A DNA stretch of 56,526 nucleotides from an uncultured Oscillospiraceae bacterium. GTDB lineage: Bacteria; Bacillota; Clostridia; Oscillospirales; Oscillospiraceae. Below, piece by piece: positions 27,648-47,550 of this stretch (its first letter is position 1; the number at the start of each line of letters is the position of its first letter). Both the position numbers and the translations under genes were made by a program. The stretch is from the NCBI GenBank assembly GCA_944385475.1, contig CALWXJ010000029.1:1-56526 (forward strand). Direction: 5' to 3'. Below the pieces are notes generated by a model, which searched no databases, was not told the origin of the DNA, and worked only from the letters and a program-made list of their open reading frames with translations.

Positions 27648-28375
27648 ACGATCTCCTCCTTTTCCAGCACGGGGCCGTCCTTGCAGATGCGCTTGGAGCC
27701 GTATTTGGTCTTGCAGGAGCAGCCCATACACGCCCCGAACCCGCAGCCCATCCGCTCTTCAAAGCTGAACTGGCCGGAAGTCCGGCACGCTTGCCACACC
27801 GCCCGGAGCATGGGCTCGGGGCCGCAGGTGTAAAGATAGCTGTACGGCCCGATCTGGGCCATGGCGTCCGTCACCATGCCCCGGATCCCGCAGGATCCGT
27901 CCACCGTGGCCACCGCCGTCTGCACCCCCAGCTCGCAGAACTTCTCCACATAGAACATCTCCCGCTCCGTGTTGAAGCCCAGCACCGCCCGCACCTCTTT
28001 CCCCTGGGCGCGAAGGCGCCGGGCAAGGCCATACAGCGGGGGGATGCCCACGCCCCCGCCCACCAGCAGCGGCTGGGGGCCGCTTTTGTCCATGTCATAG
28101 CCGTTGCCAAGGCCGGTGAGCAGGTTCATGGTCTCCCCGCTTTTGCGCTGGGTCATGGCCTGGGTGCCCCGGCCCAGCACTTTGTACAAAATGGTCACTG
28201 TCTCTTCCGTCCAGTCGCACACGGAAATGGGCCGGCGCAGATAGAACCCCTCCAGCTGGAAGTTCAAAAACTGCCCGGGGCGGGTGATGTGGGAGGTGTC
28301 CCCCACCAGAACCATCTCATAGATCCCCTGGGCCAGAGGGCGGTTCACCAAGATCCTGAAATCCTGTTTTTCCAT
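27641..28375 (-). CDS. pyrK: Dihydroorotate dehydrogenase electron-transfer subunit
   Basis: 244 residues. FAD-binding FYLRRPISVCDW, nucleotide site LLVGGGVGIPPLYGLARRL, and a C-terminal [2Fe-2S] cluster whose four cysteines are seen in MGCGFGACMGCSCKTK and later RICKDGPV. It carries electrons from PyrD FMN to NAD+. I chose the ATG at 28375 (MEKQDFRIL); a GTG four codons earlier touches the ribosome site. Confidence 0.94.
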   Translation of the reverse strand: MEKQDFRILVNRPLAQGIYEMVLVGDTSHITRPGQFLNFQLEGFYLRRPISVCDWTEETVTILYKVLGRGTQAMTQRKSGETMNLLTGLGNGYDMDKSGPQPLLVGGGVGIPPLYGLARRLRAQGKEVRAVLGFNTEREMFYVEKFCELGVQTAVATVDGSCGIRGMVTDAMAQIGPYSYLYTCGPEPMLRAVWQACRTSGQFSFEERMGCGFGACMGCSCKTKYGSKRICKDGPVLEKEEIVW

Positions 28376-28397
28376 GGCGCTTTGCACTCCTCCTTTT

Positions 28398-31300: not shown

Positions 31301-31571
31301 CGATGCCGGGAATAATGGCGTCCGGGCGCTCGTGGCGGAGGATCCGGGCCACATATTCCAGCGTCAGCGGCTCCATGTACACCTTGTCGGCGATGGCGGT
31401 GTCCGTCATGATGGTGGCAGGGTTGGAGTTCACCAGCACCACCTCATACCCCTCCTCCTTCAAGGCAAGGCAGGCCTGGGTGCCGGCGTAGTCGAACTCC
31501 GCCGCCTGGCCGATGACGATGGGGCCGGAGCCAATGATCATGATCTTTTTCAAATCCGTTCTCTTTGCCAT
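28398..31571 (-). CDS. carB: Carbamoyl-phosphate synthase large chain
   Basis: 1057 residues, full length, with two homologous ATP-grasp halves. The first starts KKIMIIGSGPIVIGQAAEFD, the second VVLGAGPIRIGQGVEFDYST. The C-terminal MGS-like allosteric domain ends the protein. It makes carbamoyl phosphate from bicarbonate, ammonia and two ATP. The glutaminase chain carA is absent from this operon and the window, so it must be encoded elsewhere or free ammonia is used. Gaps: 45 bases from pyrC and 22 bases to pyrK. Confidence 0.97.
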   Translation of the reverse strand: MAKRTDLKKIMIIGSGPIVIGQAAEFDYAGTQACLALKEEGYEVVLVNSNPATIMTDTAIADKVYMEPLTLEYVARILRHERPDAIIPGIGGQTGLNLAMQLEKKGILKECQVELLGTSSRSIERAEDRELFKELCQEIGEPVIPSQITYSIDEAREAAKTIGYPVVLRPAFTLGGTGGGFAYDEEELVEVATNAFRLSPVHQVLVEKSVKGYKEIEFEVMRDATDHAITICGMENVDPVGVHTGDSIVVAPIMSLSDHDMKMLNDSAIKIIRALEIEGGCNVQFALNPTSSEYFLIEVNPRVSRSSALASKASGYPIARVTAKVAVGMDLADIAIANTNAAFEPSLDYVVAKLPRFPFDKFASASNALGTQMKATGEVMGIGSNLEECLLKAVRSLEIGVCHFHMAKFDAMSREELLEYVGTFRDDNIYAIAQLLRLGESVEKLYEVTMITPLFLESIKKITDYEKVLSAHPGDLETLKAAKKMGFSDKYIAKLWDVPEEQVWNQRRREGVMPVYRMVDTCHTGAYIPYFYSSYTGKSASVVTDKAKKVVLGAGPIRIGQGVEFDYSTVHAVQTIRKAGYEAIIINNNPETVSTDYTTADKLYFEPLTTEDVMNVMAYEEASEAIASLGGQTAINLAQPLMERGIEIIGTRVEAIANAEDRDKFEKVLEELHIPQSAGRAVTNIEDGVKAAAEVGYPVLVRPSFVLGGRAMQLVANEEQLRRYLKTAVEIDADKPVLVDHYILGKEVEVDAICDGRDVFVPGIMELVERTGIHSGDSISVYPPFSISDKVKGTILTYAKKLGLGLHIVGLYNIQFIVDEKEDVYIIEVNPRSSRTVPFLSKATGYSLADIATNVILGTSLKEQGVFDLYPAEKKRWYVKVPVFSFAKIRGLDAYLSPEMKSTGEAIGYDDKLYRAMYKALQASGMQLQNYGTVLATVAEKDKAEALPLIRRFYDLGFNIEATEGTAKFLRANGIRTRALKKISEGSEDIPNALRQGHIAYVINTRDIGSMDQAKDGFLIRRLSVENNVTMFTALDTVRIVLDVLEEMTIPVSTIDA

Positions 31572-31616
31572 ACTTTTTATCCTCCGCTATTCAAAATATA
31601 AAATATGTAAAACTAC

Positions 31617-33436: not shown

Positions 33437-33928
33437 ATGAAAAAAGTTGGAATCGTGATGGGCAGTACCAGCGATCTCCCCGTGGTGGAGAAGGCCGTGG
33501 CCGTACTGCAGGAATATGGCGTTCCCATGGAGGTTCGCGTCTTATCCGCTCATCGGTGCCCGAATGAAGCAAGGGAGTTTGCTATCTCGGCGCGCCAGAG
33601 CGGATTTTCTGTTCTTATCGCCGCCGCCGGCATGGCGGCCCACCTGGCAGGCGCCCTGGCGGCCAACACCACCCTGCCGGTGATCGGCATCCCCTGCAAG
33701 GGCGCCAGCTTTGATGGGATGGACGCGCTGCTCTCTACGGTGATGATGCCCTCGGGGATCCCGGTGGCCACCGTGGCGGTGGACGGGGCCAAAAACGCCG
33801 CGCTGCTGGCCATCCAGATCATGGCCGTTACAGACCAGGATTTGGCCGCCAAGCTGGAAAAGGCCCGTCAGGAGGGAACCGAGGCCGTTTTGAAGGCCGA
33901 CGCCCAGATGCGGGCAAAATACGTCTGA
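33437..33928 (+). CDS. purE: N5-carboxyaminoimidazole ribonucleotide mutase
   Basis: 163 residues, class I Pur[18 protein letters not shown] and [11 protein letters not shown] at the N-terminal active site, [15 protein letters not shown] and [17 protein letters not shown] later. It interconverts N5-CAIR and CAIR. GAGGAGG precedes the ATG by 6 bases. No purK is in the window, so N5-CAIR formation is either encoded elsewhere or replaced by direct carboxylation. Confidence 0.96.
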
Positions 33929-34011
33929 ACTTTCTTTTCCCCTTGGTATTGAGATGTTGTTCAAATATTTATTTTCATAATACCTTACATAAAAAACAGG
34001 AGGAACTTCAC

Positions 34012-34692
34012 ATGGATCTTATCTACACCGGCAAGACGAAAAACGTCTACGCCCTGGACAACGGCAACTATCTGCTGAAATTCAAAGACGACTGCACCGG
34101 CAAAGACGGCGTATTTGACCCCGGTGAAAACTCCGTGGGCCTCACCATCGAGGGGGTGGGCGCTGTAAATCTGCGGATGTCCGTCTATTTCTTCGAAAAG
34201 ATCCATGCCGCCGGCATCAAGACCCACTTTGTCAAGGCCAATATGGAGGACGTCACTATGGAAGTGCTGCCCGCCAAGGTCTTCGGCCAGGGGCTGGAGG
34301 TCATCTGCCGCCACAAGGCAGTGGGCAGCTTCTTCCGCCGCTATGGCCAGTATATCGCCGAGGGAGCCGATCTGCCCGCCTATGTGGAGACCACCTTTAA
34401 AAATGACGCCCTGGGGGATCCCCTGGTGACCAAGGACGGCCTGGTGGTACTGGGCGTGATGACGGAAAAGCAGTATGACGATATCAAGGCCCAGACCCAG
34501 AAGATCACCCAGATCGTGGCTGACGAGATGGCCAAGCGGGGCATGGTCCTCTATGACATCAAGTTCGAGTTCGGTTATGACGCCAACGGCGATGTCATGC
34601 TCATCGACGAGGTGGCTTCCGGCAACATGAGAGTCTATAAGGACGGCAAGTACGTCGATCCCATGACCCTCTCCCAGCTCTTTTTTGCCTGA
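34012..34692 (+). CDS. Divergent SAICAR synthase-like protein
   Basis: 226 residues, PurC fold: [19 protein letters not shown] at the N-terminus, [29 protein letters not shown] and [20 protein letters not shown]. The canonical motif [12 protein letters not shown], which holds substrate-contacting residues, is [13 protein letters not shown] here, and KAV-G-S-F replaces the usual RN-x-(A/S)-G-S. The window also has a canonical PurC (36177-36896), so this copy may use another substrate or be a back-up enzyme. AGGAGG lies upstream of the ATG, and its stop overlaps the following PurF-like start (TGATG), so the two are made together. Confidence 0.75.
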
Positions 34693-36116
34693 TGGGCGGG
34701 TTTTTTGGTGCGGTCTCCAAGCGGGACGTAACGCTTGATTTGTTTTTTGGCGTGGACTATCACTCCCACCTTGGCACCCGGCGGGGCGGCATGGTCCTCT
34801 TTGATCAGAAAAACGGATTCCAACGCCAGATCCACAATATTGAAAACTCCCCCTTCCGGACGAAGTTTGAACATGACTTGTCTGACTTTTCCGGCTGCAG
34901 CGGTATTGGCTGCATCTCCGATACGGATCCCCAGCCGCTGCTGGTCCGCTCTCACCTGGGCCTCTATGCCATCACCACCGTGGGCATCATCAATAACGCT
35001 GAGGACCTGGTGAAGACGTACTTTGCCGATCACGACCACCAGTTCATGGCCATGAGTTCCGGGGCGGTGAACTCCACAGAGCTTACCGCCGCCCTGATCA
35101 ATCAAAAGGAGGACCTGGTCTCCGGCATTCTCCACGCCCAGGACATGATCCAGGGCTCCATGACCATCCTCATCCTCACCGATGAGGGGCAGATCATTGC
35201 CGCCCGGGACAAGCTGGGGCGCCTGCCGGTCCTGGTGGGACAGAACGAGGATGGCTGCTGTGTCTCCTTTGAGTCTTTCGCCTATCAAAAGCTGGGCTAT
35301 TCCAACGCCTATGAGCTGGGCCCCCGGGAGATCGTGCGCCTTACCCCCCAAGGGTTTGAGACCCTCTCCCCCGCCGGGAAGGAGATGCGCATCTGCGCGT
35401 TTTTGTGGACGTATTACGGCTATCCCAACTCCAATTATGAAGGGGTAAACGTGGAGGTCATGCGCAACCGCAACGGTGAGATCATGGCCCGGGACGAGGC
35501 AGCCAAAGGTGCCTTGCCCGACGTGGACTATGTGGCGGGGGTCCCGGATTCCGGCCTGCCTCACGCCATCGGCTTTGCCCACGGCAGCAAAAAGACTTTT
35601 TTTCGCCCTTTTGTGAAATACACGCCAACCTGGACCAGCTCCTTTATGCCCGCCAACCAGAGCGTGCGCAACCAGGTGGCCAAGATGAAGCAGATCCCCG
35701 TGCCGGAGCTGATCGAGGGGAAAAAGCTCCTCTTTGTGGATGATTCCATCGTCCGGGGCACCCAGCTGCGGGAGACAGTGGAGTTCCTTTACAGCTCCGG
35801 CGCCAAAGAAGTCCATATGCGCTCTGCCTGTCCTCCCATTATGTACGGGTGCAAGTATCTCAACTTCTCCCGCAGCAACTCTGATATGGAGCTGCTCTCC
35901 CGCCACACCATCCAGGAGATCGAGGGAGACGAGGGTCAAAAGCACCTGGAAGAATATGCCGACAGCACCACAGAGCGGGGCAAGTGCTTACTGCGCACCA
36001 TCTGTGAGAAGCTGGGATTTGACTCTTTGGGTTATCAGTCTCTGGACGGGCTTCTGGAGGCCATCGGCATCGATAAAAATAAGATCTGCACCTATTGCTG
36101 GACAGGGCGGGAATAA
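34692..36116 (+). CDS. purF: Amidophosphoribosyltransferase homologue without the glutaminase cysteine
   Basis: 474 residues. The Ntn glutaminase domain is recognisable (FFGAVSKRD, YHSHLGTRRGGM, AITTVGIINN, SSGAVNSTEL), but the catalytic N-terminal Cys of MCGxFG is Gly: the protein starts MGGFFGA and no upstream start restores it. The phosphoribosyltransferase domain is intact, with PRPP motif LLFVDDSIVRGTQ (Asp350-Asp351). Four cysteines at about 235, 379, 466 and 469 (RICAFLW, SACPP, CTYC) fit the [4Fe-4S] ligands of B. subtilis PurF. It can be expected to make phosphoribosylamine from PRPP and free ammonia rather than glutamine. Coupled to the divergent PurC. Confidence 0.85.
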   Translation: MGGFFGAVSKRDVTLDLFFGVDYHSHLGTRRGGMVLFDQKNGFQRQIHNIENSPFRTKFEHDLSDFSGCSGIGCISDTDPQPLLVRSHLGLYAITTVGIINNAEDLVKTYFADHDHQFMAMSSGAVNSTELTAALINQKEDLVSGILHAQDMIQGSMTILILTDEGQIIAARDKLGRLPVLVGQNEDGCCVSFESFAYQKLGYSNAYELGPREIVRLTPQGFETLSPAGKEMRICAFLWTYYGYPNSNYEGVNVEVMRNRNGEIMARDEAAKGALPDVDYVAGVPDSGLPHAIGFAHGSKKTFFRPFVKYTPTWTSSFMPANQSVRNQVAKMKQIPVPELIEGKKLLFVDDSIVRGTQLRETVEFLYSSGAKEVHMRSACPPIMYGCKYLNFSRSNSDMELLSRHTIQEIEGDEGQKHLEEYADSTTERGKCLLRTICEKLGFDSLGYQSLDGLLEAIGIDKNKICTYCWTGRE

Positions 36117-36176: not shown

Positions 36177-36896
36177 ATGGAACAATTGGAGCAAGTTTAT
36201 GAGGGCAAGGCCAAAAAGGTCTTCCGCACCGATGACCCGGCGCTGTACATCGTGGAGTACAAGGATGACGCCACCGCCTTTAATGGGCTGAAAAAGGGCA
36301 CCATCGCAGGCAAGGGCGTCATCAACAATCAAATGACCAACCGCCTCATGGCAAAAATGGAAAAGGCGGGCATTCCCACCCACTTTGTCCGGGAGCTCTC
36401 CCCCCGGCAGACCCTGGTGAAGAAAGTGTCCATCGTGCCTTTGGAGGTCATCATCCGCAACATCTCCGCCGGCTCTTTCGCCAAGCGCTACGGCGTGGAG
36501 GAAGGGATCGTGTTTGACCAGCCCACCATTGAATTCTCTTACAAAAACGATGCTCTGGGAGATCCCCTGATCAACTCCTATCACGCCCTGGCCCTGAAGC
36601 TGGCCACGGCAGAGGAGCTGGACACCATCCGGCGCTATGCCTTCGCCGTCAACGACACCCTCAAGGCCTTCTGGGCCGAATGCGGCGTGACGCTGGTGGA
36701 TTTCAAGCTGGAGTTCGGCCGTCTGGAGGACGGCACCATCGTCCTGGCTGATGAGATCAGCCCCGACACCTGCCGCCTGTGGGACAGCAAGACCCAAAAG
36801 AAGCTGGACAAGGACCGTTTCCGCCGGGACCTGGGCGGCGTGGAAGACGCCTATCAGGAGATCATGGAGCGCCTGCTCTGCCACGACGCCGACTAA
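36177..36896 (+). CDS. purC: SAICAR synthase (canonical)
   Basis: 239 residues, usual length. [75 protein letters not shown] and [12 protein letters not shown] are all standard. It joins CAIR and aspartate using ATP. The ATG has a GAGG site. It lies 60 bases after the PurF-like gene. Confidence 0.96.
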
Positions 36897-37097: not shown

Positions 37098-38132
37098 ATG
37101 CGTAGTTTTTCTGACAGCTACCGCGCTGCCGGCGTGAATATCGAGGCCGGCTATGAGGGCGTCAAGCTCATGAAGCAGCACGTGGAGCGCACGGTGATCC
37201 CCGGCGTGGTATCCGACCTGGGGGGCTTTGGCGGCCTGTTCGCCCCGGACCTCTCCGGCATGAAAGAGCCGGTTTTGGTCTCCGGCACCGACGGCGTGGG
37301 CACCAAGCTGCGCATCGCCATTTTGATGGACAAGCACGATACTGTGGGCATCGACTGCGTGGCCATGTGCGTCAACGACATCATCTGCTGCGGGGCAAAG
37401 CCGCTGTTTTTCCTGGACTACATCGCCATCGGCCGCAACGACCCGGAAAAGGTGGCCTCCATCGTTTCCGGCGTGGCGGAGGGCTGTGTCCGCTCCGGCT
37501 GTGCCCTCATCGGCGGAGAGACCGCGGAGCACCCCGGCATGATGCCGGCGGAGGACTATGATCTCGCGGGTTTTTCCGTGGGCATCGTGGATCGTTCCAA
37601 AGTGGTGGACAACCAGAGGATGCAGCCCGGGGACGTGATCCTGGCCCTGCCCTCCTCCGGCATCCACTCCAACGGGTTTTCCCTGGTGCGGAAGGTCTTT
37701 GACGTGGAGTCCGCCGACCTGGGGCAGTATTCCCAGGAGCTGGGCACAACCCTGGGGGAGGCGCTGCTGACCCCCACCCGGCTGTATGTCAAACCGGTGC
37801 TGGCCGCCCTGGAACATGCCGACATCCGGGGCATCAGCCACATCACCGGCGGCGGCTTCTATGAGAATATCCCCCGGTGCCTTCCCAAGGGGCTCACCGC
37901 CAAGATCGACAAGGCCGCCATCCGGATCCCTCCCATCTTCTCCATGATCCAGTCTCTGGGCAAGATCCCGGAGCACGACATGTTCAATACCTTCAACTGC
38001 GGCGTGGGCATGGTGGTCATCACCAGCCGAGACACCGCCGACCGGGCATCTGCCGCCCTGGCAGCCCAGGGCTGCGAGGCCTATGTGCTGGGCGAGGTGG
38101 TCCAGGGAGAGGAACGGGTGGTCCTATGCTGA
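37098..38132 (+). CDS. purM: Phosphoribosylformylglycinamidine cyclo-ligase
   Basis: 344 residues. SYRAAGVNIEAGYEGVKLMK at the start, SGTDGVGTKLRIA, the metal/ATP-binding AMCVNDIICCGAKPLFFLDY, GCALIGGETAEHPGMM and GIHSNGFSLVRKV. It closes the imidazole ring to give AIR. It overlaps purN by 7 bases. Confidence 0.96.
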   Translation: MRSFSDSYRAAGVNIEAGYEGVKLMKQHVERTVIPGVVSDLGGFGGLFAPDLSGMKEPVLVSGTDGVGTKLRIAILMDKHDTVGIDCVAMCVNDIICCGAKPLFFLDYIAIGRNDPEKVASIVSGVAEGCVRSGCALIGGETAEHPGMMPAEDYDLAGFSVGIVDRSKVVDNQRMQPGDVILALPSSGIHSNGFSLVRKVFDVESADLGQYSQELGTTLGEALLTPTRLYVKPVLAALEHADIRGISHITGGGFYENIPRCLPKGLTAKIDKAAIRIPPIFSMIQSLGKIPEHDMFNTFNCGVGMVVITSRDTADRASAALAAQGCEAYVLGEVVQGEERVVLC

Positions 38133-38749
38133 GCCCCGCCCGCATCGCGGTGCTGGTCTCCGGCGGCGGCACCAACCTCCAGGCCCTGATGGATGCCCAG
38201 TCCGCCGGGAAGCTCCCCCACGGGCAGATCGTGCTGGTGATCGCCTCCAACCCGGAGGCCTATGCCCTGGAGCGGGCCAAGAAGGCGGGTATCCCCGGAT
38301 ATGTGGTCTGCCGGAAGGCCCTGGGCTCCCAGGAGGCCTTTGAGGCGGGCATTTCCGCCCTGCTAAAAGAGTATCAGGTGGATCTCATCGTCCTGGCGGG
38401 CTTTTTGAGCATCCTCTCCCCCGCCTTCACCAAGTGCTGGCCGGAGCGGATCCTCAATGTCCACCCCTCCCTGATCCCGTCTTTTTGCGGCAAGGGGTAC
38501 TACGGCCTGAAGGTCCACGAGGCCGCTTTGGAAAAGGGCGTGAAGGTCACCGGCGCCACCGTTCACTTCGTCAACGAGATCCCCGACGGGGGAGAGATCC
38601 TGCTGCAAAAGGCGGTGGAGGTCCTCCCCGACGACATGCCGGAGATCCTGCAGCGCCGGGTAATGGAGCAGGCGGAGTGGGTGTTGCTGCCCCAGGCCGC
38701 GGAGATGATCGCCGCCAAAATCGTAAAAGAAAGAGAGGACGCCTTATGA
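38126..38749 (+). CDS. purN: Phosphoribosylglycinamide formyltransferase
   Basis: 207 residues. IAVLVSGGGTNLQALMDA, the active-site strand VLAGFLSILSP, LNVHPSLIPSFCGKGYYG and GATVHFVNEIPDGGEIL (catalytic Asp). It uses 10-formyl-THF, supplied by fhs at the operon end. The ATG at 38126 lies within the last codons of purM; the stop overlaps the next gene as ATGA. Confidence 0.95.
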   Translation: MLSPARIAVLVSGGGTNLQALMDAQSAGKLPHGQIVLVIASNPEAYALERAKKAGIPGYVVCRKALGSQEAFEAGISALLKEYQVDLIVLAGFLSILSPAFTKCWPERILNVHPSLIPSFCGKGYYGLKVHEAALEKGVKVTGATVHFVNEIPDGGEILLQKAVEVLPDDMPEILQRRVMEQAEWVLLPQAAEMIAAKIVKEREDAL

Positions 38750-39456
38750 ACATCTATGAAATCGCCTCTTTGACGCAGCTGCTGCAGGACAACCCCTATC
38801 CCGGCCGGGGCATCGTGCTGGGAAAGACCGCTGACGGCAGGCAGTCTGTGGCGGCCTACTTCATCATGGGCCGCAGCGTCAACAGCCGCAACCGCATTTT
38901 TGTGGAGGAGCCGGACGGCATCCGCACCGAGGCCTACGATCCCTCCAAGCTCTCGGACCCCAGCCTCATTATCTACCATCCCGTCCGGCAGATGGGCCGG
39001 GGGCTCATCGTCACCAACGGCGACCAGACAGACACCATTCTTTCCTTTTTGGAGCGGGGCCTGCCCATGGAACAGGCCCTGCGCACCCGGGAGTTCGAGC
39101 CGGACGGCCCCAACTGGACCCCTCGGATCTCCGGCCTCTTAAGCCCCGACGGCAGCTATAAGCTCTCCATTTTGAAGTCCGCCGATGCCCAGGGCTCCGC
39201 CTGCGTGCGAGAGACTTTCGAGTATCCCGGCCAGGCGGGTGTGGGGCACTTCCTCCACACCTATGTCACCGACGGCAATCCCATCCCCACCTTCCAGGGT
39301 GAGCCGGAGCGGGTTGCCATCTCCGGGGATATCGAAACCTTCACCCAGGCACTTTGGGAGAGCCTCAATAACGACAACAAGGTCTCCTTGTTCGTCCGCT
39401 ACACGGACCTGGAGACCAACGCCTATATCCAGCGCATTGTCAACAAAAATCAGTAA
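38746..39456 (+). CDS. purO: PurO-type IMP cyclohydrolase
   Basis: 236 residues of the IMP cyclohydrolase-like (PF07826) family first known from archaea: NPYPGRGIVLGKTADGRQSV, AYFIMGRSVNSRNRIF, IYHPVRQMGRGLIVTNGDQT and late RYTDLETNAYIQRIVNKNQ. It closes FAICAR to IMP. It is fused to nothing and stands directly before a separate AICAR formyltransferase, so the two activities of bifunctional PurH are split between unrelated chains here. The start overlaps the purN stop (ATGA). Confidence 0.9.
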   Translation: MNIYEIASLTQLLQDNPYPGRGIVLGKTADGRQSVAAYFIMGRSVNSRNRIFVEEPDGIRTEAYDPSKLSDPSLIIYHPVRQMGRGLIVTNGDQTDTILSFLERGLPMEQALRTREFEPDGPNWTPRISGLLSPDGSYKLSILKSADAQGSACVRETFEYPGQAGVGHFLHTYVTDGNPIPTFQGEPERVAISGDIETFTQALWESLNNDNKVSLFVRYTDLETNAYIQRIVNKNQ

Positions 39457-39470
39457 AAGGAGCGGGACAC

Positions 39471-40649
39471 ATGAACGAACTGGAACTCAAATACGGCTGC
39501 AACCCCAATCAAAAGCCCGCCCGCATCTTCATGCGTGACGGCAGCGACCTGCCCATCACGGTCCTCAACGGCAAGCCCGGCTATATCAATTTGCTGGATG
39601 CGCTGAACTCCTGGCAGCTGGTCCGTGAACTGAAGGAGGCCACAGGCCTGCCCTCTGCCGCCAGCTTCAAGCATGTCTCCCCCGCCGGCGCCGCCGTGGG
39701 ACTGCCCCTTTCCGATGTGGACAAGAAGATCTACTTCGTGGATGAGGCGGCGGACCTGAGCCCCATCGCCTGCGCCTATATCCGGGCCCGGGGCGCCGAC
39801 CGCCTGTGCTCTTACGGCGACTGGGCGGCCCTCTCCGACGTGTGCGACGCCGCCACCGCCCGGTACTTGAAATATGAGGTCTCCGACGGGATCATCGCCC
39901 CCGGCTATACCGATGAGGCCCTGGAGATCCTGAAGACCAAGAAAAAGGGCAATTACAACGTAGTAAAGATCGACCTGGGCTATGTTCCTGCTGCGGAGGA
40001 GTATAAAGACGTCTTCGGCGTCACCTTCCAGCAGGGCCGGAACAACTTCAAAATCGATGAGGCCCTCCTCTCCAACATCGTCACCAAAAACAAAGACCTG
40101 CCCCGGCAGGCCAAAATCGACATGATGGTGGCCCTTATCACCCTCAAGTACACCCAGTCCAACTCCGTGTGCTATGTCAAGGACGGACAGGCCATCGGCG
40201 TGGGGGCCGGGCAGCAAAGCCGCATCCACTGCACGCGCCTTGCAGGCAACAAGGCGGACAACTGGTACCTCCGGCAGCATCCCAAGGTCCTGGGATTGCA
40301 GTTCGTGGAGGGGATCCGCCGCCCCGACCGGGACAACGCCATCGACATCTACACCTCCGACGAATATGAGGATATCCTGGCCGACGGCGTGTGGCAGCAG
40401 ACCTTTACCGTCAAGCCTGAGGTGCTGACGGCGGAGGAGAAAAAGGCCTGGATCGCCACCCAGTCCGGCGTCACCTGCGGGTCCGACGCCTTCTTCCCCT
40501 TCGGCGACAATGTGGAGCGCGCCCGCAAGTCCGGCGTGGCGTACATCGCCGAGCCCGGCGGCTCCATCCGGGACGACCATGTGATCGAAACCGCGGATAA
40601 GTACGGCATGGTGATGGCCTTTACCGGAATGCGGCTGTTCCACCACTAA
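39471..40649 (+). CDS. AICAR formyltransferase (PurH C-terminal domain, stand-alone)
   Basis: 392 residues. LKYGCNPNQKPARIF at the start, SFKHVSPAGAAVGLPL with the catalytic Lys-His, TLKYTQSNSVCYVKDGQAIGVGAGQQSRIHC and FFPFGDNVERARKSGV are PurH formyltransferase signatures. The MGS-like cyclohydrolase half of PurH is absent; the upstream PurO-type enzyme supplies it. It uses 10-formyl-THF. AAAGGAG lies upstream of the ATG. Confidence 0.95.
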   Translation: MNELELKYGCNPNQKPARIFMRDGSDLPITVLNGKPGYINLLDALNSWQLVRELKEATGLPSAASFKHVSPAGAAVGLPLSDVDKKIYFVDEAADLSPIACAYIRARGADRLCSYGDWAALSDVCDAATARYLKYEVSDGIIAPGYTDEALEILKTKKKGNYNVVKIDLGYVPAAEEYKDVFGVTFQQGRNNFKIDEALLSNIVTKNKDLPRQAKIDMMVALITLKYTQSNSVCYVKDGQAIGVGAGQQSRIHCTRLAGNKADNWYLRQHPKVLGLQFVEGIRRPDRDNAIDIYTSDEYEDILADGVWQQTFTVKPEVLTAEEKKAWIATQSGVTCGSDAFFPFGDNVERARKSGVAYIAEPGGSIRDDHVIETADKYGMVMAFTGMRLFHH

Positions 40650-40865: not shown

Positions 40866-42140
40866 ATGAATCTTCTGGTCATCGGCGGCGGAGGCCGCGA
40901 GCATGCCATTATCAAAAAGCTGAAGGAAAACCCGGAGGTGGAGGTGATCTACGCCCTGCCCGGCAATGGCGGAATTGCCGCCGATGCCGTCTGCGTGCCG
41001 CAGATCGGCGCCAAGGACATCCCACAGCAGGTGGAATTCGCCAAGTCCCACGGCGTGGATTACGCCGTAGTGGCCCCTGACGATCCCCTGGCCCTGGGGG
41101 CGGTGGACGCCCTGACGGCGGCAGGCATTCCCTGCTTCGGTCCGGAGGCCAAGGCCGCCGTCATTGAAAGCAGCAAGGTCTTTTCCAAAAGCCTCATGAA
41201 AAAGTACCACATCCCCACCGCCGCCTATGAGACCTTTTCCGACCCCGCCGCCGCCTGCGCCTATGTGGAGCAGTGCTCCGTGCCGGTGGTGGTAAAGGCC
41301 GACGGGCTGGCCCTGGGAAAGGGCGTCACCATCGCCCAGACCCGCCAGGAGGCCAAGGACGCCATCCACGCCATGATGGAGGACAAAGTCTTCGGCGAAT
41401 CCGGCAGCCAGGTGGTCATTGAGGAGTTCCTCACCGGGCCGGAGGTGTCGGTTCTCTCCTTCACCGATGGGGAGACCCTTGTCCCCATGGTCTCCTCCAT
41501 GGACCACAAGCGGGCTTTGGACGGTGACCAGGGCCCCAATACCGGCGGCATGGGCACCATTGCCCCCAACCCCTTCTACACCCCGGCTGTGGCGGACTAC
41601 TGCATGAAGGAGATCTTCCTGCCCACCATCCGGGCCATGAAGACCGAGGGGCGGACCTTCCGGGGATGCCTGTACTTCGGCCTGATGCTCACCCCGGACG
41701 GGCCCAAGGTCATCGAATACAACTGCCGCTTTGGGGACCCGGAGACCCAGGTGGTGCTGCCCCTTTTGAAAAGCGACCTCTTGACAGTGATGCGGGCCAC
41801 CACAGAGGGCACGCTGGCCCAAACGCCGGTGGAGTTCTCCTCCGGGGCCGCCTGCTGCGTGGTGATGGCCTCCCAGGGCTACCCCGGCAAGTACGAAACC
41901 GGCTTCCCCATCACCATGACTCCGGAGGCCGCCGCCCACACCTATGTGGCCGGTGCCAAGCTGGAGGACGGACAGCTGCGCACCTCCAGCGGCCGGGTAC
42001 TGGGGGTCACCGCCACGGCGGACACCCTGCCCCAGGCCATAGAGGCCGCCTATGCCCTGACCCGGGACATCCATTTTGAAAACGCCTATTGCCGCAAGGA
42101 TATCGGCCAGCGGGCCCTGCAGGCAGCAAGGGAGAGATGA
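40866..42140 (+). CDS. purD: Phosphoribosylamine-glycine ligase
   Basis: 424 residues. LLVIGGGGREHAIIKKL at the N-terminus, ATP-grasp segments VVKADGLALGKGVTIAQT and DHKRALDGDQGPNTGGMGTI, and EYNCRFGDPETQVVLPLL near the metal site. It joins phosphoribosylamine, the product of PurF, to glycine. TTGGGAGG precedes the ATG. Its stop overlaps the purL start region. Confidence 0.96.
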   Translation: MNLLVIGGGGREHAIIKKLKENPEVEVIYALPGNGGIAADAVCVPQIGAKDIPQQVEFAKSHGVDYAVVAPDDPLALGAVDALTAAGIPCFGPEAKAAVIESSKVFSKSLMKKYHIPTAAYETFSDPAAACAYVEQCSVPVVVKADGLALGKGVTIAQTRQEAKDAIHAMMEDKVFGESGSQVVIEEFLTGPEVSVLSFTDGETLVPMVSSMDHKRALDGDQGPNTGGMGTIAPNPFYTPAVADYCMKEIFLPTIRAMKTEGRTFRGCLYFGLMLTPDGPKVIEYNCRFGDPETQVVLPLLKSDLLTVMRATTEGTLAQTPVEFSSGAACCVVMASQGYPGKYETGFPITMTPEAAAHTYVAGAKLEDGQLRTSSGRVLGVTATADTLPQAIEAAYALTRDIHFENAYCRKDIGQRALQAARER

Positions 42141-42142
42141 TG

Positions 42143-45100
42143 ATGGTTTACAGAGTCTTTGTGGAAAAACGCCCCGGCCTGGCGCCGGAGGCCGCCGGCC
42201 TTCTGGGGGACTGCCACTCCTTCCTGGGCCTGGCGTCTTTGCAGGATGTGCGCATCCTCAACCGCTACGACGTGGAGGGGATCGAGGAAGACCTCTTTGC
42301 TTATGCCCGCACCGCTGTTTTCTCTGAGCCCCAGCTGGACATCGTGAGCGACACGCCGGACTTTTCCGGCGCCCGGGCCGTCTTCGCCGTGGAACCCCTT
42401 CCCGGCCAGTTTGACCAGCGGGCGGACTCCGCCGCCCAGTGCATCCAGCTCCTCAGCCAAAAAGAGCGGCCCACCGTCCACTCCGCCAAGGTCTATGCCC
42501 TGTACGGCGATTTGACGGGAGCGGACGTGGAGGCTGTGAAGCACTATGTCATCAACCCTGTGGAGTCCCGGGAGGCATCTTTGGACCTCCCTGAGACGCT
42601 GCGTCTGTCCCACCCGCAGCCTGACCGTGTGGAGACGGTGGAGGGCTTCACCGCTTTGGATCAGGCGGGTCTTCGCGCCCTTTTGGAGCGCCTGGGCCTT
42701 GCCATGGATCTGGATGACCTTTCGTTCCTCCAGTCCTATTTCCGGGATGAAGAGGGCCGGGACCCCACTATTACGGAGATCCGGGTGGTGGACACCTATT
42801 GGTCCGACCACTGCCGCCACACCACCTTCTCCACCCATATCGACGCCGTGGAGATCCTGGATGAGCCGGTGGCACAGGCCTACCGGCGCTATCTTGCCGC
42901 CCGGGAAGAGGTCTACGGCCCGGAGAGGGCCGCCGTGCGGCCCCAGACGCTGATGGATCTTGCCACCATCGGCGCCAAGGTGCTGAAAAAGCGGGGCGGG
43001 CTGAAGAATCTGGACGAGAGCGAGGAGATCAACGCCTGCTCCATCCACGTCACCGCCACCGTGGACGGCCAGCCTCAGGACTGGCTTTTGATGTTTAAAA
43101 ACGAGACCCATAACCACCCCACGGAGATCGAGCCCTTCGGCGGCGCCGCCACCTGCATCGGCGGATGCATCCGGGATCCTCTTTCCGGCCGGGCCTATGT
43201 CTATCAGGCCATGCGCCTTACCGGCGGCGGCGATCCCCGCTCTCCCCTGGATAAGACCCTGGAGGGAAAGCTCCCCCAGCGCAAGATTGCCACCACCGCC
43301 GCGGCGGGCTATTCCTCCTACGGCAACCAGATCGGCCTTGCCACCGGCCATGTGGCGGAGGTGTACCACGAGGGGTACGTCGCCAAGCGCATGGAAGTGG
43401 GGGCCGTGGTGGGCGCCGCCCCGTCGGAAAATGTGGTGCGTCAGCGTCCCGCTCCCGGGGATGTGGTGATCCTGCTGGGGGGCCGCACCGGCCGGGACGG
43501 CATCGGCGGCGCCACCGGCTCTTCCAAGAGCCATAACCTCAAGTCCCTTGCCACCATGGCTTCGGAGGTGCAAAAGGGCAACGCCCCGGAGGAACGGAAG
43601 ATCCAGCGGCTCTTCCGCAACGGGGATGTCACCCGGATGATCAAGCGCTGCAATGACTTTGGCGCCGGCGGCGTGTCCGTGGCCATTGGGGAGCTTGCCC
43701 CGGGCCTGCGGATCGACCTGGACGCCGTGCGGAAGAAGTACGAGGGCCTGGACGGCACGGAGCTGGCCATCTCCGAGAGCCAGGAGCGTATGGCCGTAGT
43801 GGTGGCCCCGGAGCATGTGGAGGCCTTTTTGGCCGCTGCCGCCGGAGAAAATCTGGAGGCGTATCCCGTGGCGGAAGTCACGGAGGAAGCCCGGATGGTG
43901 ATGCACTGGAAGGGGCAGACCATTGCCGACCTCAGCCGCGCCTTTTTGGATACCAACGGTGCCAGCAAGCACACCACGGTGGCGGTATCGGCCAAGGACC
44001 GCTCCGGGAGCAAGGACGCCTCCTTTACCTCCCTGCGTCAGATGGCCGGCAGCCTCAAGTGCGCCTCCCGCCGGGGGCTGACGGAGCGCTTTGACTCCTC
44101 CATCGGCGCCGGCACCGTCCTCGCCCCCTTCGGCGGGGCTTACCAGTCCTCTCCCGCCCAGGCAATGGCGGCGCTGCTGCCGGTGCTGCCCGGCCACGAG
44201 ACACAGGATTGCTCGGTCATGGCCTGGGGCCTGGACCCCGAGGCCATGACGGCGGATCCCTATACCGGTGCCCGGGACTCGGTGGTGACCTCCGTTGCCA
44301 AGCTGGTGGCCGCGGGGTGCGACTACCAGGGAGCCTATCTCACCTTCCAGGAGTATTTTGAAAAGCTCCGCACAGACCCCCACCGCTGGGGCAAGCCCTT
44401 TGCCGCTTTGCTGGGGGCGCTGGACGCCCAGCTGGGGCTGGGTCTGGCCGCCATCGGCGGCAAGGACTCTATGTCCGGCTCCTTCTTAAACCTGGATGTG
44501 CCCCCCACCCTCATCTCCTTTGCCGTGGCGCCTGCCAAGGCTCCGGAGATCCTCTCTACCGCCTTCTCCGCCCCGGGCCACCCCGTTTGCCTGTTCCAGG
44601 CGGAGGGGGAGGATGTCTCCCGGTGGAAGTCTGTCTGGCAGCAGTTCCATAAGCTGTGCCAGGCGGGCAAGGTGAAATCTGCCTGGGCTGTGGAAAACGG
44701 CCTGGCGGAGGGCGTGATGAAGATGTCCTTCGGCAACCGGGTGGGCTTTTGTGCCCAGGGGGAGGCAGACTGGTTTACCCCCATGCCCGGCGCCATCATC
44801 GCCGAGCTGACGGAGGTGCCCCAGGGGGTGCCCTGTCTGGGGCACACCACTGCCCAGCCGGTGGTGGATCTGGGGAACGACAGCGCCCCCATTGAGGAGC
44901 TGTCGGCGCTGAATGACGGCGTGCTGGAAGGGGTCTATCCCACCCGCAGCGCCGACAGCGGCGGCAGTGTGGAGGCCTTCTCCTTCCCCTGCCGGGAGCG
45001 GCGTGCCCCGGCGGTGAAGACCGCCCGGCCCCGGGCCCTCATCCCCGTGTTCCCCGGCACCAACTGCGAGTACGATACCGCCCGGGCCCTGATAGCGGCG

Positions 45101-45823
45101 GGAGCGGAGGCGGAGATCTCCGTTTTGCGCAACCTCACCGCCGACGACGTCTCCCGGAGTGTGGAGCGCTTTGCCCGGCAAATGGCCCAGGCCCAGATGG
45201 TGGTGATCCCCGGCGGCTTCTCCGGCGGCGATGAGCCTGACGGCTCCGCCAAATTCATTACCGCCTTCTTCCGCAATCCCGCGGTAAAAGAGCAGGTCGC
45301 CGCCCTTTTGGAGCGGCGGGACGGATTGATGCTGGGGATCTGCAACGGCTTCCAGGCTCTCATCAAGCTGGGACTGGTGCCCTACGGCAAGATCCTGGAC
45401 ACCGACGAGACCTGCCCCACCCTCACCTATAACACCATCGGCCGCCATCAGTCCAAGATGGTGCGCACCCGGATCTGCTCCAACAAGTCCCCCTGGCTCT
45501 CCGCCACCCAGGTGGGGGAGATCTTCACCGTCCCCGTCTCCCATGGGGAAGGGCGCTTCCTGTCCTCAGAGGCATTGGTGCGCCAGCTGGCGGAAAACGG
45601 GCAGATCGCCACCCAGTATGTGGATCTGGCAGGCGCCCCCTCCATGGACACTGCCTTCAACCCCAACGGCTCCCTCTTCGCGGTGGAGGGCATCACCTCC
45701 CCCGACGGCCGGGTGCTGGGGAAGATGGGCCACTCCGAGCGCATCGGCCGCCACCTCTACCGCAACATCCCCGGGGAGTATGACATGAAGCTGTTTTCCT
45801 CCGCGGTGGCTTATTTCCGCTGA
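42143..45823 (+). CDS. purL: Phosphoribosylformylglycinamidine synthase, single chain
   Basis: 1226 residues. Long PurL with synthase and glutaminase in one chain: [48 protein letters not shown] and, at the C-terminus, [17 protein letters not shown] and the glutaminase nucleophile in [11 protein letters not shown] with SHGEGRF. Three ATGs in a row (42137, 42140, 42143) follow GGGAG. I prefer the third by spacing (8 bases), but the others overlap the purD stop and cannot be excluded. Unlike the PurF-like protein, it keeps its glutaminase cysteine. Confidence 0.93.
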
Positions 45824-45876: not shown

Positions 45877-47550
45877 ATGAAGATCCTTTCGGATATTGAG
45901 ATCGCCCAGGCCTGCACCCCCCGGAAAATCACAGAGGTGGCCCGCAGCGCCGGCATCGACGAGGAATATCTGGAACTTTACGGCAACTACAAGGCCAAAG
46001 TGGACTACCGCCTGCTGCGGGAGTGCCAGCGGCCGGACGGGAAGCTGATTCTGGTCACCGCCATCAACCCCACCCCCGCCGGGGAAGGCAAGACCACCAC
46101 CACCGTGGGCCTTGCAGACGCCCTGCACCAGATGGGCAAAAATGTGGTGGTGGCTCTGCGGGAGCCCTCTTTGGGCCCTGTGTTCGGGGTGAAGGGCGGC
46201 GCTGCCGGCGGCGGCTACGCCCAGGTGATCCCCATGGAGGACATCAACCTCCACTTCACCGGTGACTTCCACGCCATCGGGGCGGCCAACAATCTCTGCG
46301 CCGCCATGCTGGACAACCACATCCAGCAGGGCAATGCCCTGGGGATCGACGTCAAGCGCATCGTCTGGCGCCGCTGTGTGGACATGAACGACCGCCAGCT
46401 GCGCAACATTGTGGACGGCCTGGGAGGCCGGATGCAGGGCGTGCCCCGGGAGGATGGATTTGACATCACCGTGGCCAGCGAGATCATGGCGGTGCTGTGC
46501 CTGGCGTCGGACATCCCCGACCTCAAGGCCCGCCTGGGCCGCATGGTCATTGCCTACACCTATGACGGCAAGCCCGTCACCGCCCACGACATCAAGGCCG
46601 AGGGGGCCATGGCGGCCCTGCTGAAAGATGCCCTGAAGCCCAACCTGGTCCAAACTTTAGAGGGCACCCCTGCCTTTATCCACGGCGGCCCCTTTGCCAA
46701 CATCGCCCACGGCTGCAACAGTGTCATGGCCACCCGCATGGCCATGCGTCTGGGGGATTACGCCGTGACGGAGGCAGGCTTCGGCGCGGACTTAGGCGCG
46801 GAGAAGTTCCTGGACATCAAATGCCGCCTGGCAGGGCTCAAGCCCTCCGCGGTAGTGGTGGTGGCCACCGTCCGGGCCCTGAAAAACCACGGGGGCGTGG
46901 CCAAGGCGGACCTGGGACAGGAGAATCTCGCGGCTTTGGAAAAGGGCCTGCCCAACCTGCTCCAGCATGTGGGGAACATCACCAAGGTCTATGGCCTGCC
47001 CTGTGTGGTGGCCATCAACGCCTTCCCCACGGACACCCCCGCCGAGCTGAAGCTGGTGGAGGACAAGTGCCGGGAGCTGGGAGTGAATGTGGCTCTCAGC
47101 GAGGTGTGGGCCAAGGGCGGCCAGGGCGGCCAGGCGCTGGCCCAGGAGGTGCTGCGCCTGTGCCAGCAGGAGAGCGACTTCCGCTTTGCCTACGACCTTC
47201 AGGACTCCATTGAGAAAAAACTCACGGACATCTCTCAGCGCATCTATCATGCCGATGGAGTGGTCCTCACCCCCGCTGCCCGCAAGCAGATGGCGGAGCT
47301 GGAGGCCCTGGGCTACGGCGGCCTGCCCATCTGCATGGCCAAGACCCAGTATTCCTTCTCTGACGACGCCTCTCTCCTGGGAGCTCCCCGGAATTTCACC
47401 ATCACGGTGCGGAATCTGAAGGTCTCCGCCGGCGCCGGGTTCCTGGTGGCCCTGACCGGCGACATCATGACCATGCCGGGCCTTCCCAAGGTCCCGGCAG
47501 CGGAGAAGATCGACGTGGATGAGAACGGCCGCATCACAGGCCTGTTCTGA
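45877..47550 (+). CDS. fhs: Formate-tetrahydrofolate ligase
   Basis: 557 residues. P-loop-like [65 protein letters not shown] and [13 protein letters not shown] are all typical. It makes 10-formyl-THF from formate and ATP for PurN and the AICAR formyltransferase. It starts 53 bases after purL, with GAGGAG upstream, and is closed by a strong terminator, so it is probably the last gene of the purine operon. Confidence 0.97.

What the first reader, a model, noticed from the sequence alone, without database searches (positions are those of the whole stretch)
34012..36116. PurF without its glutaminase nucleophile, coupled to a divergent second PurC
The PurF-like protein begins MGGFFGA where active PurF has Met-Cys-Gly, so it lacks the N-terminal cysteine that releases ammonia from glutamine, while the PRPP loop and four Fe-S cysteines are kept. 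Its start overlaps the stop of a PurC-like gene whose DEISPDTCR motif is changed to DEVASGNMR, and a canonical PurC follows. The operon thus holds a coupled PurC-like/PurF-like pair inside an otherwise complete purine pathway. Inference: first-step amination uses free ammonia, or the pair handles a different amine. I recall similar MGGFFG proteins in other Clostridia, so this may be a widespread unstudied variant.
Basis: partly seen in the sequence, partly recalled or inferred. Interest (0 to 1): 0.72.

Follow-up and report, generated by a model that had tools for sequence, protein, structure and literature searches.

The report
Purine-synthesis enzymes probably running on ammonia
A bacterium related to gut Clostridia makes its purines with a first enzyme that has lost the part that takes nitrogen from glutamine, beside a second unusual enzyme that seems to have lost part of its grip on aspartate, which suggests that both textbook steps can run on plain ammonia.

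Summary
Window 34692-36116 encodes a PurF relative (PurF2) with Gly where PurF has its catalytic Cys. It overlaps by one base a PurC relative (PurC2, 34012-34692); a normal purC follows. PurF2 also lost the glutamine pocket but keeps the PRPP loop and four cluster cysteines; none of 55 aligned PurF2 has the Cys. Of 117 genomes of the order, 57 have PurF2; in 25 of them it is the only PurF found, and 23 of these 25 have PurD. Best reading: a stand-in PurF using free ammonia.

The two genes are no fixed pair. PurC2 gave the surprise: it keeps most reported CAIR/ADP contacts but lacks a C-terminal Lys/Arg stretch linked to aspartate binding. Where PurC2 (or sister PurC3) is the only PurC, PurB is missing in 24 of 30 genomes and PurA in 25 of 30, against 2 of 80 each where ordinary PurC exists. 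Nine such genomes hold an otherwise complete IMP cluster; five have no detectable fumarase-superfamily lyase. By inference PurC2 amidates CAIR straight to AICAR. How those cells make AMP is unexplained. Nothing was assayed.

The parts
34692..36116 (+). PurF2: PurF-like protein without the Cys nucleophile (MGGFFG), 474 aa; Ntn-like domain about 1-230, PRTase domain about 231-474
   Evidence: (TIGR01134 166.3 bits, cut-off 350)
34695..34697 (+). codon 2 of PurF2 (GGC, Gly) where canonical PurF has the Cys nucleophile
34012..34692 (+). PurC2: divergent PurC-like protein, 226 aa, DEVASGNMR motif, no C-terminal LDKDRFRRD stretch
   Evidence: (TIGR00081 122 bits, cut-off 189.9)
33998..34003 (+). AGGAGG ribosome-binding-like site before PurC2; none seen just before PurF2
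   Evidence: read by eye
36177..36896 (+). canonical PurC ([18 protein letters not shown])
   Evidence: TIGR00081 253.9 bits, over the cut-off
33437..33928 (+). PurE, upstream gene of the same operon
   Evidence: name recalled from the sequence; relatives recur there
37098..38132 (+). PurM
   Evidence: name recalled
38126..38749 (+). PurN
   Evidence: name recalled
38746..39456 (+). PurO-like IMP cyclohydrolase
   Evidence: name recalled
39471..40649 (+). AICAR formyltransferase (PurH-like)
   Evidence: name recalled
40866..42140 (+). PurD (TIGR00877 509.5 bits)
42143..45823 (+). PurL, large form with glutaminase domain (LGICNGFQ)
   Evidence: name and motif recalled
45877..47550 (+). Fhs-like formate-tetrahydrofolate ligase
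   Evidence: name recalled

Best explanation
PurF2 is a drop-in replacement for PurF that makes 5-phosphoribosylamine from PRPP and free ammonia. The PRPP-transferase half is kept and should work as in PurF; the glutaminase half has lost both nucleophile and glutamine pocket, yet stays conserved, so it probably serves as scaffold, ammonia entry or regulatory site. PurC2 is a separate drop-in replacement for PurC that should bind ATP and CAIR but has probably given up aspartate. Where it is the only PurC it most likely amidates phospho-CAIR with ammonia directly to AICAR, so that PurB is not needed for IMP. Shown: the sequence losses, the single clades, the operon positions and the gene presence/absence patterns. 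Inferred: both enzyme activities and the use of ammonia.
For: PurF2: no Cys at position 2 in 55 of 55; Arg27, Asn97 and Asp128 of the canonical pocket replaced and the RY.TTG stretch absent (roles of these residues recalled). PRPP loop, PPi loop and four cysteines kept. PurF fold by AF2 (mean pLDDT 89.4; TM 0.80 to 1ao0). Only PurF found in 25 of 57 PurF2 genomes; 24 of these 25 are at least 90% complete, 23 have PurD over the cut-off, and 18 have PurF2 in a purine cluster (and the window). E. coli PurF with its Cys changed to Ala or Ser still uses ammonia (as told in PMC3261824 section 6), and yeast PRPP amidotransferase uses ambient ammonia too (PMC12017579, passages). PurC2: seven CAIR/ADP contacts listed for E. 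coli PurC are kept, matched by motif (K8, K10, R100, S106, D182, E186, R207). LDKDRFR is in 19 of 19 PurC1 sequences held and a KD.[FY]R stretch in 0 of 35 PurC2/PurC3; Lys228/Arg232 of human PAICS help bind aspartate (mapping recalled). In the 30 genomes where PurC2/C3 is the only PurC, PurB is missing in 24, PurA in 25, both in 24; with PurC1, 2 of 80 each. Nine of the 24 hold PurE-C2-F2-M-N-O-H-D-L in one stretch. Five PurC2 genomes have no Lyase_1 match at E 0.001. Second sample: PurB over cut-off in 7 of 24 genomes with PurC2 beside PurF2 against 20 of 25 with PurC1 there.
Against: No activity is known for either protein. The former glutaminase domain of PurF2 is about as constrained as that of PurF1 (41 of 230 invariant against 38 of 221) and has new invariant residues (D22, Y23, H24, R56, D77), which suits a new donor or ligand as well as a dead scaffold. 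32 genomes keep PurF1 and PurF2 together, and in 18 of 54 fetched stretches (one at a contig end), among them 7 of the 25 PurF2-only genomes, no other purine gene was found beside PurF2. PurC2 keeps the Thr and Lys that also touch aspartate in PAICS (T29, K184; mapping recalled). The C-terminal Arg that PurC2 lacks is named a CAIR contact in E. coli PurC (Arg215), and Brown et al. thought a PurC truncated before it may still make SAICAR. Six of 30 PurC2/C3-only genomes keep PurB; PurC3 splits 2 and 2. PurA is missing too, and a recognised Apt is over cut-off in only 1 of 40 genomes, so AMP in those cells is unexplained. Most genomes look like drafts, and purC1-purA-purB often lie as one cassette, so one missed island would remove all three. 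Fisher values are not corrected for kinship.
Confidence: 0.6

Rival explanations
1. The Ntn-like domain of PurF2 still delivers ammonia, but from another donor or by another nucleophile, for instance through the new conserved pocket (D22-Y23-H24-x-H26, C74, D77).
For: D22, Y23, H24, D77 invariant and C74 in 54 of 55 in PurF2, with other residues there in PurF1; the domain is not decaying.
Against: No N-terminal nucleophile Cys (Gly or Ser instead); glutamine-site residues gone. No partner gene was identified beside PurF2, though the neighbours were only grouped by BLAST and few were named. Conserved residues alone do not show a donor.
Confidence: 0.15
2. PurC2 and PurF2 form a dedicated pair that handles a different amine or makes a different product.
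For: One-base overlap in the window; PurC2 directly before PurF2 in many operons; PurC2/C3 in 21 of 25 PurF2-only genomes against 2 of 32 with both PurFs.
Against: 34 of 57 PurF2 genomes have no PurC2/C3 and 12 of 35 PurC2/C3 genomes have no PurF2. In eight genomes each is the only member of its family found beside an otherwise complete cluster to IMP.
Confidence: 0.07
3. PurF2 is a regulatory or inactive subunit of a PurF1-PurF2 complex.
For: PurF1 and PurF2 are neighbours in several operons (L036-L039, L043, L064, L066).
Against: 25 of 57 PurF2 genomes have no PurF1 over the cut-off, and the PRPP site is intact.
Confidence: 0.06
4. PurC2 is an ordinary aspartate-using SAICAR synthetase with a rearranged aspartate site; SAICAR is opened by an unrecognised lyase, and the loss of PurA/PurB reflects adenine salvage or missed islands in draft genomes.
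For: Thr and Lys of the aspartate site kept (mapping recalled); truncated PurC as only PurC noted in an archaeon; purC1-purA-purB form one cassette in four genomes that also have PurC2; 6 of 30 PurC2/C3-only genomes have PurB.
Against: Five PurC2 genomes have no Lyase_1 match at E 0.001, and four of these have the IMP cluster in one stretch. The loss repeats within six genera, each also holding a relative with PurC1, PurA and PurB (g8, g19, g22, g28, g39, g49; genus labels).
Confidence: 0.35

Closest known systems
PurF, glutamine PRPP amidotransferase (EC 2.4.2.14; 1ao0, 1gph, 1ecb, 6lbp)
   Same: Two-domain fold (TM 0.78-0.81 to the 17 PurF chains listed), PRPP and PPi loops, four cluster cysteines, often the purF place in the operon
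   Different: No Cys nucleophile, no glutamine-pocket residues, remodelled flexible loop (KYTPTW.RSF), below the NCBI purF cut-off
PurF' of Crenarchaeota (Brown et al. 2011, PMC3261824)
   Same: PurF relative without the N-terminal Cys, near purine genes; those authors already proposed ammonia use
   Different: There each genome studied also has a normal PurF; here PurF2 is the only PurF found in 25 of 57 genomes. Kinship to PurF' was not tested
PurC, SAICAR synthetase (EC 6.3.2.6; 4fe2, 2ywv, 2gqr, 6yb8)
   Same: Same fold (TM 0.83-0.85 to 4fe2, 2ywv, 2gqr and 6yb8), seven reported CAIR/ADP contacts kept
   Different: No C-terminal Lys/Arg stretch, SPDT changed to ASGN, a seven-residue insertion near [11 protein letters not shown]; separate clade; usually without PurB where it is the only PurC
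Truncated archaeal PurC (Thermococcus TK0432, TGAM_1268; M. labreanum Mlab_0676; PMC3261824)
   Same: They end before the C-terminal Arg (Arg215 of E. coli PurC), which I match to the stretch PurC2 lacks
   Different: Discussed there as possibly active SAICAR synthetases or inactive copies; no link to loss of PurB in the section read; kinship not tested

Membership tests
PurF (glutamine PRPP amidotransferase) | N-terminal Cys nucleophile | tested here: not met
   Gly in the window; G 47, S 8, C 0 of 55 PurF2; C in 26 of 29 PurF1 rows, gap in 3 rows read from a later start (PurF1 rows repeat some genomes)
PurF (glutamine PRPP amidotransferase) | glutamine-binding residues (Arg, Asn, Asp and the RY.TG loop) | tested here: not met
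   R to L 55 of 55; N to V/I/T; D to S/A/P/Q and others; RY..TG absent from the PurF2 consensus (roles recalled)
PurF (glutamine PRPP amidotransferase) | PRPP loop, PPi loop, four cluster cysteines | tested here: met
   (sequence only)
PurF (glutamine PRPP amidotransferase) | NCBI equivalog cut-off TIGR01134 (350 bits) | tested here: not met
   166.3 bits; one of 14 control genomes also has no match over it
PurF (glutamine PRPP amidotransferase) | two-domain PurF fold | tested here: met
   AF2 model, 1ao0 TM 0.80
PurF (glutamine PRPP amidotransferase) | glutamine-dependent activity | not testable with these tools
   needs an assay
PurF' of Crenarchaeota | no N-terminal Cys, near purine genes | tested here: met
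   (36 of 54 fetched stretches have other purine genes)
PurF' of Crenarchaeota | a Cys-bearing PurF in the same genome | tested here: not met
   none over the cut-off in 25 of 57 PurF2 genomes, the window's included
PurF' of Crenarchaeota | common descent with PurF' | not tested
   no PurF' sequence was fetched
PurC (SAICAR synthetase) | CAIR and ADP contact residues of E. coli PurC | tested here: inconclusive
   seven kept by motif match, Arg215 lost, Gln69 not checked
PurC (SAICAR synthetase) | aspartate-binding C-terminal Lys/Arg | tested here: not met
   LDKDRFR 19 of 19 PurC1 held, KD.[FY]R 0 of 35 PurC2/C3; role from PAICS, mapping recalled
PurC (SAICAR synthetase) | NCBI equivalog cut-off TIGR00081 (189.9 bits) | tested here: not met
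   122 bits
PurC (SAICAR synthetase) | PurB in the same genome to use SAICAR | tested here: inconclusive
   missing in 24 of 30 PurC2/C3-only genomes, present in the window's own genome

The most novel reading that the evidence does not exclude
Many gut Clostridia run a purine pathway in which aspartate-fumarate chemistry is dispensed with: PurF2 makes phosphoribosylamine from ammonia, PurC2 turns CAIR directly into AICAR with ammonia and ATP, no SAICAR or PurB is needed, and AMP is made by a still unknown route that replaces PurA and PurB.
Probability: 0.4. Interest if true: 0.88.

Novelty: new variant of a known kind. Interest (0 to 1): 0.74.

Why it matters
De novo purine synthesis is drawn as nearly fixed from PRPP to IMP, with glutamine and aspartate as amide donors, and PurB is reported as the one enzyme of the pathway that E. 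coli needs even in rich medium (PMC10912719, passage). A clade that lost the glutaminase of PurF, and a PurC clade that goes with loss of PurB and PurA, would mean two donor steps can be swapped for ammonia. Annotation that names these genes purF and purC would assign the wrong nitrogen source and, for many genomes, a lyase step for which no gene was found. It also leaves a sharp open question: how these cells make AMP.

Tried and rejected
Sequencing error or wrong start for PurF2: rejected; the N-terminus is conserved across 55 sequences and no upstream in-frame ATG, GTG or TTG exists. Canonical PurF elsewhere in the own genome: not found, but the genome is 85.86% complete. PurC2 and PurF2 as an obligate pair: rejected. 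A recurrent unknown gene beside PurC2 or PurF2 that could supply nitrogen or make AMP: none identified. The ORFs of the fetched stretches were only grouped by BLAST (the 45 largest groups shown; unlabelled groups 0 and 2 lie, by the coordinates of their representatives, antisense to purM and the AICAR formyltransferase gene; most others were not named); ten proteins were named by Pfam. A CofE-like gene (PF01996) lies beside PurC2 and PurF1 in L113, beside PurF2 in L082 and near PurF2 in L206; no further copy was hit in the ORF sets of L036-L209 or the window. Apt (TIGR01090) as AMP source: over cut-off in 1 of 25 PurA-less and 0 of 15 other genomes, and that model is over cut-off in only 6 of 14 control genomes, so this says little. 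AICAR from histidine synthesis: rejected by reasoning (needs ATP first). Print: searches listed no paper on this clostridial PurF or on a PurC that bypasses PurB; several listings were cut at 20 titles, and only that open-access library was searched. Papers: sections 6 and 12 of PMC3261824 and section 9 of PMC9376930 read; passages only of PMC12017579, PMC7056826, PMC6501894 and PMC10912719; of the others, listings.

Limits of the counts: the order sample is 117 genomes, 116 of them at least 90% complete and at most 5% contaminated, plus the own one. PurF2 was counted at over 300 bits to the window protein, PurF1 at 350 bits or more. PurC1 is 238 bits or more in PF01259 and PurC2/C3 155 or less; a 145-bit fragment at a contig end of G024, which also has a full PurC1, was left out. 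The 30 PurA-less genomes are the 117 less the 87 with a match, 20 of them named in the listing. PurF1 rows repeat G016, G025 and G115. PurF2 of G103 and G092 are fragments, counted as present but not aligned. PurC1 sequences aligned are 19 from the fetched stretches, not all 80 genomes. PurB in G054 is a fragment below the cut-off and is counted as missing. In one search, 49 of the 80 named genomes were searched (the 31 without a PurC beside PurF2 were left out); three of the five PurC1-side misses (G151, G154, G164) are broken fragments; their completeness is not told; one (L138) has the same PurF2 as a genome of the first sample.
Full report
What is there. The window holds a purine operon on the + strand. 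PurC2 (34012-34692, 226 aa) and PurF2 (34692-36116, 474 aa) share one base at their junction; a canonical PurC follows at 36177-36896, then PurM, PurN, a PurO-like cyclohydrolase, AICAR formyltransferase, PurD, PurL and Fhs, with PurE upstream (gene names recalled from sequence except PurD, PurF2 and the two PurCs, which were tested). The own genome also has PurA and PurB on contig C63, outside the window. No other PurF was found in it, but it is only 85.86% complete.

PurF2 has lost the glutaminase, not only its Cys. In an alignment of 55 PurF2 and 29 PurF1 rows (some PurF1 genomes repeated), position 2 is Gly 47 and Ser 8 in PurF2, Cys 26 and gap 3 in PurF1. The Arg of HRGQE is Leu in 55 of 55, the Asn of HNGN is Val, Ile or Thr, the Asp of SDTE is Ser, Ala, Pro, Gln or another, and the RY.TTG stretch is absent. 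Which residues bind glutamine is recalled. The PRPP loop, the PPi loop and four cysteines are kept. PurF2 scores 166.3 bits against the NCBI purF model whose cut-off is 350, while Pfam GATase_7 is just over its cut-off. AlphaFold2 gives a confident model (mean pLDDT 89.4, weak at 312-317 in the flexible loop) whose best PDB matches are PurF structures, TM 0.80 to 1ao0. PurF2 is one side of a fully supported branch.

PurF2 stands in for PurF. In 117 genomes of the order, 57 have PurF2 and 84 have PurF1 over the cut-off: 25 PurF2 only, 32 both, 52 PurF1 only, 8 neither. Of the 25, 24 are at least 90% complete and 23 have PurD over its cut-off (G018 lacks it, G106 has a part). In 18 of the 25, the window included, PurF2 lies in a purine cluster, commonly between purE or purC and purM. 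In the other 7 (G018, G029, G032, G050, G056, G069, G109), and in 18 of all 54 fetched stretches (one at a contig end), no other purine gene was found beside it. Two short PurF2 fragments (G103, G092) were counted but not fetched.

Mechanism of PurF2. E. coli PurF with Ala or Ser for the Cys no longer uses glutamine but still uses ammonia (told in PMC3261824, section 6 read). With PurD present and no other PurF found, the simplest reading is ammonia plus PRPP giving PRA. The former glutaminase domain is not decaying: 41 of 230 positions invariant against 38 of 221 in PurF1, with new invariant residues such as D22, Y23, H24, R56 and D77. It therefore has some job left; what job is not shown.

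PurC2 is a separate story. PurC2 and a sister form, PurC3 (DEITPDIWR), make one side of a supported branch against PurC1. Matched by motif, PurC2 keeps seven of the nine residues that Brown et al. name as CAIR or ADP contacts in E. coli PurC (K8, K10, R100, S106, D182, E186, R207, invariant in 18 sequences). Arg215 is lost and Gln69 was not checked. All 19 PurC1 sequences held have LDKDRFR near the end; none of 35 PurC2/PurC3 has a KD.[FY]R stretch there. In human PAICS, Lys228 and Arg232, with Thr40 and Lys191, hold the two carboxylates of aspartate (PMC9376930, section 9 read); that the first two map to LDKDRFR and the last two to kept residues (T29, K184) is my recall. The lost Arg is thus called a CAIR contact in one paper and, if the mapping holds, an aspartate contact in the other. 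The AF2 model of PurC2 (pLDDT 90.6) is a plain SAICAR-synthetase fold with no added domain.

Where PurC2 or PurC3 is the only PurC, PurB goes missing. Of 30 such genomes, 24 have no PurB over the cut-off, 25 no PurA, and 24 neither; of 80 genomes with PurC1, 2 lack PurB (one is a fragment) and 2 others lack PurA; the 5 genomes with both PurCs, the window's among them, have both (Fisher 1.6e-16 and 1.2e-17, not corrected for kinship). Of the 24, 22 have PurD and 23 some PurF over threshold. The contrast repeats inside six genera (g8, g19, g22, g28, g39, g49); g11 and g50 do not follow it and g20 does so in part. Nine of the 24 hold PurE, PurC2, PurF2, PurM, PurN, PurO, AICAR formyltransferase, PurD and PurL (some cut at the stretch end) in one fetched stretch. 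In five PurC2 genomes (G015, G033, G048, G059, G086) no Lyase_1 match was found at E 0.001; a sixth genome without one, G097, has no PurC either. In a second, named sample PurB was over the cut-off in 7 of 24 genomes with PurC2 beside PurF2 and in 20 of 25 with PurC1 there; whether those 24 have a PurC1 elsewhere was not tested.

Reading. If CAIR becomes SAICAR, these cells have no known lyase to go on to AICAR. The pathway is kept, often as an operon, so PurC2 most likely makes AICAR itself, and ammonia is the simplest amine because PurC2 has no amidotransferase domain. PurL keeps the GICNGFQ motif in 6 of the 6 PurA/PurB-less genomes whose fetched PurL reaches it (four others are cut off before it), so this is not a general loss of glutamine use; GlmS of the own genome keeps MCG. 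PurC2/C3 goes with PurB loss in PurF1 genomes too (8 PurF1-only genomes lack PurA and PurB), so the two replacements are independent, though PurC2/C3 is far commoner in PurF2-only genomes (21 of 25) than in those with both PurFs (2 of 32).

What does not fit. Six of 30 PurC2/C3-only genomes keep PurB, and PurC3 splits 2 and 2. AMP cannot come from PurA and PurB in the others, and Apt over the cut-off was found in 1 of 40 genomes (1 of 25 PurA-less, 0 of 15 others), so AMP is unexplained. purC1, purA and purB lie together as a cassette in G013, G075, G094 and G108, so one lost or unbinned island could remove all three from a draft genome; 24 cases make this unlikely as the whole answer. Brown et al. 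thought a truncated PurC may still make SAICAR. No enzyme here has been assayed.

Known or new. PurF without its Cys was described in Crenarchaeota as PurF', beside a normal PurF in each genome, with ammonia use proposed. A sole, Cys-less PurF in a large clostridial clade, and a PurC clade tied to loss of PurB and PurA, were not seen in the listings of ten paper searches. I rate it a new variant of a known kind.

Noticed in passing
G015 G018 G019 G020 G025 G032 G033 G048 G049 G050 G059 G063 G066 G073 G076 G084 G086 G089 G090 G095 G099 G101 G106 G107: These genomes lack PurA and PurB over threshold and, but for G025, an Apt over cut-off, so the source of AMP is unknown.
   Followed up: partly
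window 35637-35639 (PurF2 residue 316): The window protein has Ser where 53 of 55 PurF2 and 29 of 29 PurF1 rows have Arg in the flexible PRPP loop.
   Followed up: no
L069 6566-7222, L062 6373-7029, L053 4625-5239, L058 10693-11304: A formate/nitrite transporter family gene (PF01226, tested for L069 only; the others alike by eye) sits between purM and purN in some PurF2 operons, perhaps a formate supply for Fhs.
   Followed up: partly
L113 7017-8204, L082 3282-4463, L206 2939-4144: A CofE-like amide ligase (PF01996, tested for L113) lies beside PurC2/PurF1 (L113), beside PurF2 (L082) or near PurF2 (L206).
   Followed up: partly
G013 C52, G075 C43, G094 C45, G108 C2: purC1-purA-purB lie together as one cassette in four of the five genomes that also have PurC2, as if gained or lost as a unit.
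   Followed up: partly
L110, L121, L123, L127: A third PurC type (DEITPDIWR, also without the C-terminal Lys/Arg stretch) is the only PurC of G009, G101, G032 and G087; PurB is present in G009 and G087 and absent in G101 and G032.
   Followed up: partly
L160, L161, L164, L167-L173, L192: PurF2 also occurs in contigs titled as Coriobacteriia relatives (Adlercreutzia, Enterorhabdus, Olsenella, Collinsella, Thermophilibacter and others), there with no other purine gene found in the fetched stretch.
   Followed up: no
L179 (Evtepia gabavorous KLE1738): PurF2 starts MGGFCG, with a Cys at position 5 instead of the usual Phe.
   Followed up: no
G019, G047: PurC2 is present but no PurF of either kind over threshold.
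   Followed up: no
window 28374-31601 and other antisense stretches: Very long open frames antisense to real genes (1075 aa opposite the 1057-aa ORF at 28398-31571, which I take for CarB by recall), probably a by-product of GC-rich coding.
   Followed up: no
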